Source of the DNA: Kalmusia sp. IMI 367209
Lineage: Eukaryota > Ascomycota > Dothideomycetes > Pleosporales > Didymosphaeriaceae
Reading direction: 5' to 3'
DNA: 64,000 nt
NCBI GenBank assembly: GCA_027946365.1
Contig: JAPEUQ010000005.1
Location: 434,001 to 498,000 of the forward strand
Made by a program: the position numbers and the translations under genes. Below, one piece after another: positions 7,351-55,377 of this stretch (the stretch's first letter is position 1; each line of letters starts with the position of its first letter). Under the pieces are notes generated by a model, which saw nothing but the letters and a program-made list of their open reading frames with translations, was not told where the DNA came from and made no database searches.

Positions 7351-8460
7351 TTCGACGGTATGTGCTATAGTCGCGGGTTAGAAAGCGAGAATAAGTGTGA
7401 AGAAGTTTGTCGCAGGCGTACCGGTCGGAAGAGGAGTCGTTGGCTGTGTTGTCGTTAGTTGTCGAGATTCAGTCGTCGCACCTGCGAAATTGGTTGATGG
7501 TGGTGCTCGCCAAGACGACTTAAGCGAACGTGCTAGCGTGCTAGCGCGGAAGAGCGGCCCCGACCTTTTTCTTTTCTTCGGCCTCCCTCACAACATCACT
7601 TCTCATAGCAACATCAACACGGTTCTTTCGGCCTATTTGTTCGGTGTGCTGCGTATCGCACAGTAGAACAAGTACCGCCATCTAGTCGTGCGCAGGCCGC
7701 GGAGGCTCGAATTGTGTAGCTGGGCGTCGCAATGTCGCTCCTGCTTCTCTGACTTATGCTTATGACAAGCAGTGCAATGAGCCATCACTCCCAACTCATA
7801 GAGGTACGTCCCTTTCTTCTCGGTCCCCCCGCCATGATGAGTCAAATTTGCGATTGAGTCCTTTGCCGGAGACCCTCGCCGGGGTCTTGTTAACGGCCTA
7901 GAACCTATGATATTCAATTTCTTACATATTCTGAGCACATTTTTCCGTTGCCTGCTGCCCTCATATTTGCAGCATTTCGCTGACTCAAGGCAGGCCTTTT
8001 AGCACTCCTACATGCAGCCCTTTTTTAGTATCTAGTGACACTGATTTCTAGGGTAAAATCCTTGGTCATCACGCTTTATCTTGGTAAGTCCAGCGATTAC
8101 CTTATTTATCAATTTTCTCCTATCCTTCCGATGATTAAAAACCTTTGCCTAGATAGTACATGACCCTTCGGGTATGATTTTCACCTTTATCACCAAGATC
8201 ACTGAGGAACTTCATCATTACACTTTATGCTGGTTACTCTGAATGAGTTGATTCGCTAACGCAATCATGCAGGCATAATCCAAACATTGGGAGGGCTCGG
8301 TAATGAAGCAATTGAGGAATATAGAGATCGTCTTCCCAAGGCGCACCCGAAGTCAGACGTGCGTTTCGTCGCATGGCATTGGTTCGTAAAAAGGCACATG
8401 TATCTTCATTTCATTGTATCAGTACCGAAGCTGTTCAGTAGTTTTCAATGCACTTCAATG
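7351..8460. other. Intergenic, RPL14 promoter and flank, no gene seen
   Basis: About 1.1 kb between eL14 and the next minus-strand gene. The part next to 7351 should be the eL14 promoter and leader. Short frames inside show no domain, no clear start context and no splice partners. Confidence 0.5.
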
Positions 8461-52226: not shown

Positions 52227-52263
52227 TCTTCCTTGGTCTAGTGGTCATGATTTCCGCTTGTCA

Positions 52264-52285
52264 AACGTTATACGACGTTAACAAG
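52264..52285 (+). other. Canonical tRNA intron, position 37/38
   Basis: 22 nt after A37. Its 3' end ACAAG can pair with CTTGT of the anticodon loop, the usual arrangement recognised by the eukaryotic tRNA splicing endonuclease. Confidence 0.8.
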
Positions 52286-52299
52286 CGCGGGAGACCGGG

Positions 52300-52349
52300 G
52301 TACGTGAGCTCTCATCCTGAACATACACATCATCCTAACTTGTGAAAAG
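52300..52349 (+). other. Spliceosomal-intron-like insert in the tRNA T arm
   Basis: 50 nt: GTACGTGAG donor, CATCCTAAC branch-like motif, GAAAAG end. Exact removal restores the 5-bp T stem and 72-nt tRNA. Its signals match the mRNA introns in this window, for example the DJ-1-like gene (GTACGT donor; CCTAAC branch). Confidence 0.75.
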
Positions 52350-52374
52350 GTTCGATTCCCCGAGGGAGAGTAAA

Positions 52375-52383
52375 TTTTTTTTT
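52375..52383 (+). terminator. Pol III terminator of tRNA-Asp
   Basis: Run of nine T starting four bases after the tRNA 3' end. Confidence 0.8.
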
Positions 52384-53045
52384 GGCATCTGTTCGATTCG
52401 TCACTGCGAAGAGTCGGTTTTTTTGTTTTGCTTAATTCACGCTAGAGCGTTTAAGGTCTTCGCCTTTTTATCCAATTAGCGTAGGGTATAATGCAGCTGG
52501 CACTCTGATGCGAATGGCATACATTGGAATATTCCTAGAAATGAGACACAAGGAAACAATCTCTATGTGTTATGAAATGTTGGGTCTTGGGAAGGGGTGT
52601 GTGTAATCGATTCTTTACAAGGCAGCTAGTATATAGCTTTACACAGCCAAGGAATAGACAGGACGACAGAGCAGGCACCTTTCATGCACTTGTATAGGTA
52701 AATTCAAAAGTTTGGTATATCGGATATTGAAAAGCTACGCATTACAAGGAGAGCGCTCCAGGAGTGCGATATCACAGCATGAGTAATATATCAGATTATA
52801 GTTCCGTCTTTTAGCCAGGCTCAGCTAGCAGACGTTACTCAGAGCTCAAGAGGAAACTCTTCATGAAATGTAGAAGAGAAATCAAAAAGACAAACTGACA
52901 ACTATCAGCAGGATAGAGGCGATGTGACGGTCACCAATAAATTAAGTCTCTGGATGTTGTGGTTGTATTAGGAAAGGACTAACTTTTACACCTGTACGGA
53001 CAGTTCGCCTTCGTGAAGTCCTCCCGTGCAGTATCTGTTTTTATA
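52384..53045. other. Intergenic between the tRNA-Asp and the tRNA fragment
   Basis: No gene is seen, and no copy of the tRNA-Asp 5' half is present on the plus strand. Confidence 0.45.
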
Positions 53046-53077
53046 CGGAGACCGGGGTTCGATTCCCCGAGGGAGAG
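53046..53077 (+). pseudogene. 3' half of tRNA-Asp, uninterrupted
   Basis: This repeats the tRNA-Asp sequence from the end of the anticodon stem to G73, without the 50-nt insert, and is followed by seven T (53079-53085). No matching 5' half, A box or acceptor partner lies upstream, so it is a fragment with only a B box. It shows the uninterrupted form of the T arm. Confidence 0.75.
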
Positions 53078-53085
53078 GTTTTTTT

Positions 53086-53705
53086 GCTTTCGAGTGATTA
53101 TTGATTGGTGGTAGAGAGGGAGCGCGGTGTAGTAAAGAGAGTGGAGTGTTCCCCGGCTTTTTTGGCCCCCCACCACACCCCTCACACTCTCCACGGCTAA
53201 CAAACTCCATTTGCGATGATTCTTAATCGTTTAAGCTTCACAACATCAAGCAGTGGTTGAAGAATATTCAGTTTTGTGAGTATTTGTCCTAGTTGTGATG
53301 AACGACTTTAGTACACACTCGTTGGTACGCGGCGCTCGGCAATAGCCAAGATAGTTGCAAGTCAAATACGCTTTATAATACTAAGTATTCGTTTAAGAAC
53401 ATTGAATTTTGGTAGGGTTTGTCCTGGTCGAGATGCACGATCTTGCGTGCAACTCCCTTGGGAGCGGCGCTCGACGAGGAATTCCCACCTGAAAACTCAG
53501 GATACTTTGCTACTGCTCGAATAACTTCCCGAATGCGTATATCTCCAATTGCTGTGATCCCACGTACAAGGCGATGCAATTATTGATTGCTTGGCGTCGA
53601 GCATCGTTCCATTTATCGGACCCACACCGACTTTTCCGTGGCACACTGCAACAATGACTGCCAGACACGACCTCACCCATGCTTGACCAGGGCTCTATCC
53701 CCACA
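53086..53705. other. Intergenic with two diverged similar segments
   Basis: 53251-53345 and 53380-53480 align imperfectly (shared TTTGTCCTxGT, GCGGCGCTCG and flanks). Many differences are C/T or G/A changes. Minus-strand frames over the second segment do not form a recognised protein. Confidence 0.45.
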
Positions 53706-55377
53706 ATGCCTTTTTTTGCTCACCATCGTTCCTCCATAATTATTTCCGCGGTTGTCGTCGCGTTTGCGTTTTCATGGAACGCCTGTCGCACGTGCTTCTC
53801 GGCATGCCCTTCATTAAATCAAGACCAGACTCACGCAGGCTATTTCCAATACGAGTGCGCCGGGAAGCCGCATCATGCGAGCTGGAAGAGCTGGTACCAT
53901 CCACAGTGGTCCTCTGGTATCGAACGGCGCGTTGACAGCCGGGGGCAGCGGGCTGGTGCTGTAACGCGGGACTGGAATATCCTCTATCATCTCGGTGGCA
54001 ATGGTCCTTGGGTGGAGAAAGTCGTAGATGTTGTCGAGGGCAGCATAGCGGTGCCAGAAGGTTGTGAGGTCGAGCAGGTACACATGATGGCCCGACATGC
54101 CGAGCGGTACCCTACTCGAAAAGTGGCATCAAGTAGGTTTGACTTTGCAAGATACACACATCTCATAATAGATATATACGCGGACTTACCTATGTCAGGG
54201 GTGCAGAATCTCGTCAAAAGAATGAATGACAGTGGGGTCACATTCAAAGGCGACATGGCTTTCTTCAACGACTGGCAGTTATTCTGGTCAGACGACGCTC
54301 TGATTGAACAGCTCACGTCTACTGGACCTTTTTCTGGCACGCTCGGTTCATTCACCACGGGCGTACGCTTGAGAACGCGCTACCATGACCTTATCACTCG
54401 AGCCTATTCTCAGCATGGCAAGATCAGATACTGGGCTAGCGATTGCCAAAGAGTCATCGAGACTGCGAGGCATTTTGGCGCTGGGTTCTTCGGTCTCGAC
54501 ACGCAGAACAACACGGAGCTTGAAGTTATATCCGAAGACGCTTCTATGGGCGCCAATACACTGACACCGGGCGATACATGCTTGGATTATATCAACGATA
54601 AAGAAGAAGGGCACGACAAGGGGTATTCGATGCTTGCCAAGTTTCGAGGAACCTATCTTGGCGCGGTTCGAGAGCGACTGCTTGAACAAAATCCTGAAAT
54701 TGAGTTCACGGACGACGAACTGTACGCTATGCAAGAGATATGCGGCTTCGAAACTACGGTGCGTGGAAGTAGCCATTGGTGTGACGTTTTTACCCAAGAT
54801 GACTTTTTAAGCTTTGAGTATGCGAGGGATCTGCTTCATTACTATCGAGCCGGGCCTGGGGTCAAGCATAGCGCTCTGATGGGTTGGCTGTGGCTCAATG
54901 CGACTACTAATCTGATGCTCAAAGGGCGTTTAGCCGGGCCGTTGTTCTTCAGCTTGTGAGTAGTCATGTTCTGAAACGTCATGCCTGACTCTCAGCAGCG
55001 TTCACGACGGTGACATAGCACCCATGATTACGGCCCTGGACATTATTACTGACGCTGAGCACCTTCCGATCACCCACGTTGTTCACTCACGCAAATGGCG
55101 AAAAAGCCAGGTGTCTCCAATGGGCGGACGGACGATATTTGAGCTTCTCTCCTGCAAAGCGAAGAGTGACCTCGAAGCTCCAAGGAGGTATGTGAGGATC
55201 AACATCAACGACGGTATCACAGCGCTTCCCGAGTGCGATAGTGGTCCCGGGAAGAGTTGCCCGCTCGAGGAATTCGCAGCTAGGACGAGGAAAAAGGGTC
55301 GCGAGGTTGGAGATTTCAGAGAGAGATGCGGGCTGGGAAATAATGCAGCCGATCGGATCACGTTTCTTTATCAGTGA
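53706..55377 (+). CDS. Histidine acid phosphatase (PHO5/phytase-like), membrane-anchored or secreted
   Basis: Two exons, 53706-54955 and 54999-55377, giving 542 aa. The 43-nt intron (GTGAGT...CAGCAG) joins FFSF to VHDGDIAP. The active-site RHxxRxP motif is ARHAERYPT with the nucleophile at about His131; the proton donor is the HD of VHDGD. Other family stretches are LYHLGGNGPWVEK, FTTGVRLRTRYHDLI and YWASDCQRVIETARHFGAGF. Histidine acid phosphatases release phosphate from organic esters outside the cell. A hydrophobic N-terminal segment (SSIIISAVVVAFAFSW) after a short basic start suggests a signal anchor. Cysteines are numerous in the ectodomain. Substrate (phytate or others) is not predictable. 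Confidence 0.92.

What the first reader, a model, noticed from the sequence alone, without database searches (positions are those of the whole stretch)
52227..52370. tRNA-Asp gene with a GT-AG, branch-point-bearing insert inside the T arm
Seen: removing 22 nt at the standard 37/38 site and 50 nt at 52300-52349 leaves a perfect 72-nt tRNA-Asp(GTC) with G73. The 50-nt piece starts GTACGTGAG, contains CATCCTAAC and ends AAAAG. Known: nuclear tRNA introns almost always sit at 37/38 and are cut by the tRNA endonuclease; spliceosomal introns act on Pol II transcripts, with rare cases in rDNA of some ascomycetes. Inference: a spliceosomal intron has entered a Pol III gene, with the insert's last G keeping the B box intact. 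If spliced, it would need the spliceosome or an unknown activity. If not, the gene is a young pseudogene.
Basis: partly seen in the sequence, partly recalled or inferred. Interest (0 to 1): 0.9.

Follow-up and report, generated by a model that had tools for sequence, protein, structure and literature searches.

The report
mRNA-type introns inside fungal tRNA genes
All four copies found of this fungus's aspartate tRNA gene are interrupted, inside the T arm, by a short insert that bears the start, branch and end marks of an mRNA intron, and similar inserts sit in several of its other tRNA genes, so the cell likely needs its mRNA-splicing machine to make tRNAs that it presumably cannot live without.

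Summary
Confirmed, and larger than reported. The window lies in the genome of Kalmusia sp. IMI 367209 (Pleosporales). The tRNA-Asp(GTC) gene has a 22-nt intron at 37/38 and a 50-nt GT-AG insert at 52/53. Four tRNA-Asp genes were found in the 42.8-Mb genome; all four carry both inserts, with identical exons, and no full-length copy without the T-arm insert was found. Both tRNA-His genes found are interrupted at 53/54. In all, 13 of 83 catalogued tRNA genes hold 15 such inserts at 9 sites: 48-71 nt, 14 GT-AG and 1 GC-AG, each with a CTRAY motif whose A lies 9-12 nt from the end. With them removed, ARAGORN of 13 genes correctly; uncut it of 13. None of 49 ordinary anticodon introns shows GT-AG plus branch motif (only 12 of them are 30 nt or longer). 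Best reading: spliceosomal introns in Pol III tRNA genes, predicted to be removed by the spliceosome, while the anticodon intron goes to the tRNA endonuclease. No RNA data were available, so splicing is inferred. A bulge-helix-bulge test was inconclusive. Some borders rest on the splice motif itself.

The parts
52227..52370 (+). tRNA-Asp(GTC) gene with two inserts
   Evidence: 72-nt cloverleaf with G73 once both inserts are removed
52227..52263 (+). tRNA exon 1 (37 nt, 5' acceptor strand to anticodon loop)
52234..52244 (+). A box TGGTCTAGTGG, Pol III internal promoter (consensus recalled)
   Evidence: read
52264..52285 (+). ordinary 22-nt anticodon-loop intron at 37/38
   Evidence: ARAGORN i(38,22)
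52286..52299 (+). tRNA exon 2 (14 nt, position 38 to 52)
52300..52349 (+). 50-nt spliceosome-type intron in the T arm, between positions 52 and 53
   Evidence: present in 4 of 4 genomic copies found
52300..52305 (+). 5' splice site GTACGT
   Evidence: the same hexamer in 4 of 4 Asp copies
52335..52339 (+). branch site CTAAC, branch A at 52338, 11 nt from the intron end
52348..52349 (+). 3' splice site AG (of AAAAG)
52349..52359 (+). B box GGTTCGATTCC, its first G supplied by the intron's last base
52350..52370 (+). tRNA exon 3 (21 nt, position 53 to 73)
52375..52383 (+). nine-T run, likely Pol III terminator; a T-run follows in 4 of 4 copies
53047..53077 (+). 31-nt 3' half of tRNA-Asp without the T-arm insert (joined as the spliced product would be); a second copy lies at C23:298925-298955

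Best explanation
The 50-nt piece inside the T arm of this tRNA-Asp gene has the sequence marks of a spliceosomal (mRNA-type) intron, and the spliceosome likely removes it from the Pol III transcript, whose ordinary anticodon intron is predicted to go to the tRNA endonuclease. Shown by calls: the insert, its GT-AG ends and branch motif, its presence in all four tRNA-Asp copies found, and 11 more inserts of the same kind at 8 further sites in nine other tRNA genes. Inferred: (1) Pol III transcribes the gene from its A box, its B box (kept whole by the intron's last G) and ends at the T-run; (2) U1, U2 and U6 recognise GTACGT, CTAAC and AG and excise the piece as a lariat; (3) the joined T arm folds, and end trimming, CCA addition and anticodon-intron removal follow in an unknown order; (4) such introns have been gained many times, and those that broke the A or B box or brought a T-run were mostly weeded out.
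For: All four tRNA-Asp places found carry both inserts; exons are 72/72 identical while the T-arm insert is 41-47 of 51 and the 22-nt intron 11-20 of 22 identical, yet GTACGT, CTAAC and AAAAG are kept in all four. No full tRNA-Asp without the insert was found: 72-mer at E<=10, 23 nt of the 3' half with up to 3 mismatches, B-box pattern. Fifteen inserts in 13 genes at 9 sites: Asp 52/53 (x4), Ala(CGC) 25/26 (x2), Ser(AGA) 47/48, His 53/54 (x2), Pro(CGG) 34/35 (inside the anticodon), Glu(TTC) 13/14 and 51/52, Leu(CAG) 19/20 and 30/31, Leu(TAA) 19/20. All 15 have a CTRAY A 9-12 nt from the end; 14 are GT-AG, 1 GC-AG. Blind excision gives that one product for 4 of 4 Asp and 2 of 2 His genes; uninterrupted relatives fix the Ser and Pro borders. 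ARAGORN calls the right tRNA in 12 of 12 and 1 of 1 cut genes. Control: 0 of 49 ordinary anticodon introns have GT-AG plus branch motif. No insert has more than three Ts in a row. Seven mRNA introns from three of the genome's own gene models are of similar size in six cases (43-59 nt, one 174) and 4 of 7 have CTRAC 10-14 nt from the end. Both tRNA-His copies found are interrupted.
Against: No RNA evidence of splicing or lariats. The bulge-helix-bulge test does not exclude the endonuclease: the Asp insert scores 8-9 of 12 pairs (p 0.03-0.07 against random positions), as high as the same gene's ordinary intron (8), and 49 ordinary introns score 3-10, so the test hardly tells the two kinds apart. 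The 49-intron control is weak, as only 12 are 30 nt or longer. The Asp 3' site is AAAAG and not the YAG favoured in fungi (recalled), though 2 of 7 mRNA introns here end AAG; 3 of those 7 have no CTRAY at all, and the alignment admitted only GT..AG introns. For Glu 13/14, Leu(CAG) 19/20 and Leu(TAA) 19/20 the best-scoring blind cut is another one, a few bases away; for Ala(C1), Ala(C3), Leu 30/31 and Glu 51/52 other products tie; for Ser and Pro the scan alone does not fix the border. Identical Asp exons may partly reflect recent copying, since about 100 bases of 3' flank are well conserved too. The Glu 13/14 insert falls inside the A box.
Confidence: 0.84

Rival explanations
1. The inserts are removed by the tRNA splicing endonuclease through bulge-helix-bulge structures, as for non-canonical tRNA introns of archaea and of the red alga Cyanidioschyzon merolae.
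For: Such tRNA introns exist in eukaryotes (PMC4090602, passages). BHB pairing is mildly raised for Asp (8-9 of 12 pairs, p 0.03-0.07) and Leu 30/31 (8 of 12, p 0.04), and the Asp value equals that of the same gene's ordinary intron; over 49 ordinary introns the score is 3-10, so the test cannot rule this out.
Against: It would not explain GT/GC-AG ends and a branch motif at nearly fixed distance in 15 of 15 inserts, nor their absence from 49 ordinary introns. No insert reaches 4 of 4 central pairs at any equivalent cut. PMC4033280 (passages) states that the yeast endonuclease cuts only introns at 37/38.
Confidence: 0.1
2. Young pseudogenes: the inserts are never removed, and functional tRNAs come from other genes.
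For: PMC4090602 (passages) says that short D- or T-arm insertions in eukaryotic tRNA genes are mostly found in one of many synonymous genes and are supposed to be pseudogenes. For Ser(AGA) and Pro(CGG) uninterrupted relatives do exist here.
Against: All four tRNA-Asp and both tRNA-His genes found are interrupted, and no other copy was found for these amino acids outside contig C22, taken to be mitochondrial. ARAGORN's labels His(atg) for L058 and Asp(atc) for L088 are misreadings of Arg(TCT) and Ala(AGC). Exons are identical among the four Asp copies while introns drift.
Confidence: 0.03
3. Introner-like mobile introns: one element family copied itself into the tRNA genes, as an account of origin.
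For: Such elements are reported in Dothideomycetes (PMC4457414, start of abstract; passages).
Against: Among 91 pairs of 14 inserts, Asp and His copies score 50-82; the best cross-family pair scores 19 (reached by 0 of 100 shuffles, in 91 comparisons), the rest 18 or less. Even the two Ala(CGC) inserts at one site score only 13. The 161-bp tRNA-Asp query found only the four tRNA-Asp places.
Confidence: 0.03

Closest known systems
mRNA-type intron in the U6 snRNA gene of fission yeast (PMC10484740, passages)
   Same: A spliceosomal intron inside a Pol III gene for a small structured RNA
   Different: There it is one gene, near the catalytic bases of U6, thought to come from reverse splicing. 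Here it is 13 tRNA genes and 9 sites, while the three full-length U6 matches found in this genome show no intron
Spliceosomal introns in nuclear rDNA of lichen fungi (PMC8527467, abstract and passages)
   Same: mRNA-type introns in a non-coding RNA gene, removed although the transcript is not made by Pol II (yeast also removed one from its Pol I transcript)
   Different: Pol I transcript; here tRNA genes with internal promoters that the intron must not break
Non-canonical tRNA introns of archaea, C. merolae and nucleomorphs (PMC4090602, passages)
   Same: Introns in D, anticodon and T arms, several per gene; for the nucleomorph of Guillardia theta excision was confirmed by RT-PCR
   Different: Those of archaea and C. 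merolae rest on BHB-type motifs, and those of the G. theta nucleomorph are 3-24 nt with unknown splicing. Here GT-AG or GC-AG, 48-71 nt, with a branch motif
Spliceosomal introns of fungal U3 snoRNA genes (PMC5832005, passages)
   Same: Normal spliceosomal introns in a small non-coding RNA gene (that abstract describes U3 as transcribed by polymerase III)
   [quoted passage not shown] not a tRNA

Membership tests
Spliceosomal intron | GT-AG (or the minor GC-AG) ends at the exon joint | tested here: met
   14 GT-AG and 1 GC-AG of 15. Borders independent of the motif for Asp, His, Ser and Pro; for the other sites the motif helped to choose among near-equal cuts
Spliceosomal intron | Branch motif CTRAY a short distance before the 3' site | tested here: met
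   15 of 15, A at 9-12 nt; null for GT..AG plus this motif 0.04%
Spliceosomal intron | Size and signals like the genome's mRNA introns | tested here: met
   48-71 nt against 43-59 nt in 6 of 7 mRNA introns and 174 in one; 4 of 7 with CTRAC; small sample, predicted models, only GT..AG admitted
Spliceosomal intron | Exact removal restores the gene product | tested here: met
   13 of 13 genes by ARAGORN; computed, not seen in RNA
Spliceosomal intron | Removal by the spliceosome as a lariat | not testable with these tools
   no RNA data
tRNA endonuclease (BHB) intron | 3-nt bulge, 4-bp helix, 3-nt bulge at the borders | tested here: inconclusive
   15 inserts: central helix at most 3 of 4 at any equivalent cut, sums 3-9 of 12; but 49 ordinary introns score 3-10, so the test does not discriminate
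tRNA endonuclease (BHB) intron | Position 37/38, as for the yeast enzyme | tested here: not met
   sites 13/14, 19/20, 25/26, 30/31, 34/35, 47/48, 51/52, 52/53, 53/54
Introner-like element | Near-identical copies at many loci | tested here: inconclusive
   no cross-family likeness among 14 inserts and only the four Asp places with the 161-bp query; the single inserts were not searched against the genome
tRNA pseudogene | Degraded exons, with intact copies elsewhere | tested here: not met
   4 of 4 Asp copies identical in exons and interrupted; 2 of 2 His interrupted

The most novel reading that the evidence does not exclude
In this fungus the spliceosome is an obligatory tRNA-maturation enzyme: tRNA-Asp, tRNA-His and several other tRNAs can be made only if Pol III transcripts are spliced like mRNA, some of them by two unrelated machines (endonuclease and spliceosome) acting on one molecule, and spliceosomal introns have colonised tRNA genes at nine separate sites, one of them inside an anticodon.
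Probability: 0.8. Interest if true: 0.95.

Novelty: new variant of a known kind. Interest (0 to 1): 0.9.

Why it matters
The usual division of labour gives tRNA introns to the endonuclease and Pol II transcripts to the spliceosome. If this reading is right, translation in this fungus depends on the spliceosome twice, gene finders that look only for anticodon introns miss essential tRNAs, and the question whether the spliceosome needs Pol II becomes testable with many natural substrates. It would also give a set of intron gains in genes whose tolerance for insertion (A box, B box, T-runs) is known base by base, which is good material for the open question of how introns arise.

Tried and rejected
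Uninterrupted tRNA-Asp or tRNA-His: no full-length copy found. BHB folding of the inserts: inconclusive, since the score does not set ordinary introns apart. Common ancestry of inserts of different families: none seen among 14; the Leu(CAG) and Leu(TAA) inserts share a site and may be related. U6 as another invaded Pol III gene: no intron in three full-length matches, a fourth is shortened. Splice-motif-plus-B-box patterns found the four Asp genes, the Glu T-stem site and nine places not followed up that read like chance (its reversed control gave as many, 15 against 14). Plasmids, one bacterial-genome scan and one viral scan gave nothing of use; the single bacterial hit was not read. No DNA of related fungi is held, so conservation in Pleosporales is untested. 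A mobile-element origin of the four tRNA-Asp loci (5' flanks unlike, 3' flanks alike) was considered and not resolved. The rDNA of this genome was not searched, nor were intact copies of Glu(TTC), Leu, Ala(CGC), Ser or Pro genes sought one by one.

The tRNA catalogue is incomplete. The Rfam search scored 63 of 1270 candidates. Of the 77 places, 18 were fetched by eye and 9 were already held; two places (C29:1627118, C30:208794) were not fetched. The count of 83 is 73 distinct ARAGORN genes (74 calls, one gene counted twice) plus 10 genes resolved by hand; three of the 73 carry an insert that ARAGORN misread, and three with very long introns (L119, L120, L124) are uncertain. Contig C22 was left out as presumably mitochondrial. 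The 49 ordinary introns come from the same list (one gene twice, the three uncertain ones included; eight loci with inserts left out). Notes of mine speak of 10 sites; the recount is 9.

Full report
What is there. The gene at 52227-52370 is a tRNA-Asp(GTC) in three exons (37+14+21 nt) with a 22-nt insert at 37/38 and a 50-nt insert at 52/53. A scan of 3465 single excisions of 30-124 nt, scored only on the cloverleaf, gives one best product for this gene (score 59, next 55), reached by four equivalent cuts, one of which is GT..AG. The intron's last G gives the first G of the B box GGTTCGATTCC, and a run of nine T follows the gene.

Where it is. The genome held as G000 has 42.8 Mb in 30 contigs. 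A window protein matches N0V90_005463 of Kalmusia sp. IMI 367209 at 100% over the part aligned, on a contig of 2,682,870 bases, which is the length of contig C26 on which the window lies; two further window proteins match the same organism and contig length at 99%. Kalmusia is in Didymosphaeriaceae, Pleosporales.

It is in every tRNA-Asp gene found. A 161-base query gave four places: the window, C1, C23 and C8. All four carry both inserts, of 22 nt and of 50, 51, 51 and 51 nt. The 72 exon bases are identical in all four; pairwise identity is 41-47 of 51 for the T-arm insert and 11-20 of 22 for the anticodon intron. About 100 bases of 3' flank are well conserved too, while the 5' flanks are not alike, so the identical exons may owe something to recent copying. 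The spliced 72-mer, searched at E<=10, found only these four genes and two 31-nt 3' halves; 23 nt of the 3' half with up to three mismatches found only the two halves. The halves lack the T-arm insert and are joined as a spliced product would be; they are too short to be tRNAs. An assembly error or a lone pseudogene is therefore very unlikely.

It is in other tRNA genes. I fetched 76 further candidate loci, chosen by Rfam tRNA score or by B box plus T-run and not by splice signals, and 20 more picked by eye from two pattern lists. Nine more genes hold inserts away from 37/38: Ala(CGC) at 25/26 in two genes; Ser(AGA) at 47/48, with an uninterrupted relative L073; His at 53/54 in two genes; Pro(CGG) at 34/35, splitting the anticodon, with an uninterrupted relative L100; Glu(TTC) at 13/14 and 51/52; Leu(CAG) at 19/20 and 30/31; Leu(TAA) at 19/20. 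With the four Asp genes that is 15 inserts, 13 genes and 9 sites, out of 83 genes catalogued (how counted is told in Tried and rejected). A search with the spliced tRNA-His found two places only, both interrupted. ARAGORN's labels His(atg) for L058 and Asp(atc) for L088 are misreadings: with a plain cloverleaf score they are Arg(TCT) and Ala(AGC).

The signature. All 15 begin GT (14) or GC (1), end AG, are 48-71 nt long, and have a CTRAY motif whose A lies 9-12 nt before the end. Random segments of flanking DNA meet GT..AG within three slides in 1.1%, and GT..AG plus the branch motif in 0.04%. Of 49 ordinary anticodon introns, 3 allow a GT..AG cut within slack and none has the branch motif too; only 12 of the 49 are 30 nt or longer, so this control is modest. 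Seven mRNA introns taken from three of the genome's own gene models in the window are 43-59 nt in six cases and 174 nt in one; 4 of 7 have CTRAC 10-14 nt from the end, 3 of 7 have no CTRAY, and two end in AAG as the Asp insert does; the alignment admitted only GT..AG introns. No tRNA insert has more than three Ts in a row, as a Pol III transcript would need; the sample is too small to call this a depletion. ARAGORN calls the right tRNA in 12 of 12 cut genes and in the thirteenth. Uncut, it of 12, one Ala(CGC) gene as Ala with the piece read as a misplaced 48-nt intron and the other as Val, and not the thirteenth.

Limits of the border calls. Borders are free of splice motifs for Asp and His (blind scan) and for Ser and Pro (relatives). 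For Ala(C1), Ala(C3), Leu 30/31 and Glu 51/52 the GT-AG product ties with others. For Glu 13/14 the best blind cut starts 1 and ends 3 bases away (63 against less), for Leu(CAG) 19/20 it lies 4-6 bases away (65), and for Leu(TAA) 19/20 four other cuts score 64 against 62 for the GC-AG cut.

The endonuclease alternative. A bulge-helix-bulge count gives the inserts 3-9 of 12 pairs, raised for Asp (8-9, p 0.03-0.07) and Leu 30/31 (8, p 0.04) and unremarkable for the other sites tested (p 0.10-0.85). The central helix is never complete. But the ordinary intron of the same Asp gene also scores 8, and 49 ordinary introns score 3-10, mostly 5-7. The test therefore does not discriminate and I count it as inconclusive; the case against the endonuclease rests on the splice signals.

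How it likely works. Inferred: Pol III makes a precursor with both introns; the spliceosome takes the GT-AG insert, the tRNA endonuclease takes the anticodon intron, in an unknown order. Because every tRNA-Asp and tRNA-His gene found is interrupted, removal would be essential for translation. Most inserts spare the A box, and GTTCRA of the B box is kept in the 12 genes measured; the Glu 13/14 insert lies in the A box. The A to B box spacing is 107-174 nt in those 12 genes.

Known things. Spliceosomal introns are known in the fission-yeast U6 gene (PMC10484740, passages), in lichen rDNA (PMC8527467, abstract and passages) and in fungal U3 genes (PMC5832005, passages). Non-canonical tRNA introns of archaea, C. 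merolae and nucleomorphs look like a different kind (PMC4090602, passages; the stem 'spliceosom' does not occur in its main text). tRNAscan-SE 2.0 describes its search for non-canonical introns for archaea (PMC8450103, passages), which may be why such fungal genes go unseen; that is inference. Ten searches of the open-licence library listed no paper that, by its title or the start of its abstract, reports spliceosomal introns in tRNA genes; most lists were capped at 15-20 rows of up to 175 papers, and subscription journals and bioRxiv are not held, so this is no proof of absence.

Verdict. Removal by the spliceosome is a strong prediction that an RT-PCR could begin to test.

Noticed in passing
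window 53024-53077 and G000:C23:298902-298955: A 31-nt 3' half of tRNA-Asp without the T-arm insert, preceded in both loci by the same short stretch (53 of 54 bases alike). A relic from before the intron gain, or a copy of a spliced molecule; why it is so well kept is unexplained.
   Followed up: partly
window 52371-52468 and the three other tRNA-Asp loci: The four tRNA-Asp loci are unlike upstream from about the first tRNA base, but some 100 bases downstream are well conserved and include a second B-box-like TGTTCGATTCG and T-runs. The duplicated unit seems to start at the tRNA's 5' end.
   Followed up: partly
L119 and L120 (G000:C23:1747470 and 1747865, minus strand): Two neighbouring tRNA-like genes with very long introns; one holds a near-perfect inverted repeat and both share an ACACAAGTTCTGATTGA stretch, perhaps a small mobile element inside tRNA introns.
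   Followed up: no
window 7830-7936: C/D box snoRNA Afu_514 (Rfam RF01515), 60.8 bits.
   Followed up: no
window 53706-55374: Phytase-like gene; the public model N0V90_005463 starts at 54255, but relatives align from 53706, so that model probably lacks its first part.
   Followed up: partly
window 53232-53338 and 53367-53473: Direct repeat of about 109 bases, 72% identical, a little downstream of the tRNA-Asp 3' half.
   Followed up: no
G000, tRNA genes in general: Ordinary anticodon introns are very common: 49 parsed by ARAGORN among 68 loci (76 less eight with the new inserts; one gene counted twice), 6 to 124 nt.
   Followed up: partly
G000:C25:1482098, C23:1905492, C28:670135, C28:665708: Four U6 matches, three full-length without intron and one shortened to 73 nt.
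   Followed up: no
L099 and L104 (tRNA-Ala(CGC), C1 and C3): The two inserts sit at the same site but are hardly alike (local score 13): either they diverged fast, or the site was hit twice.
   Followed up: no
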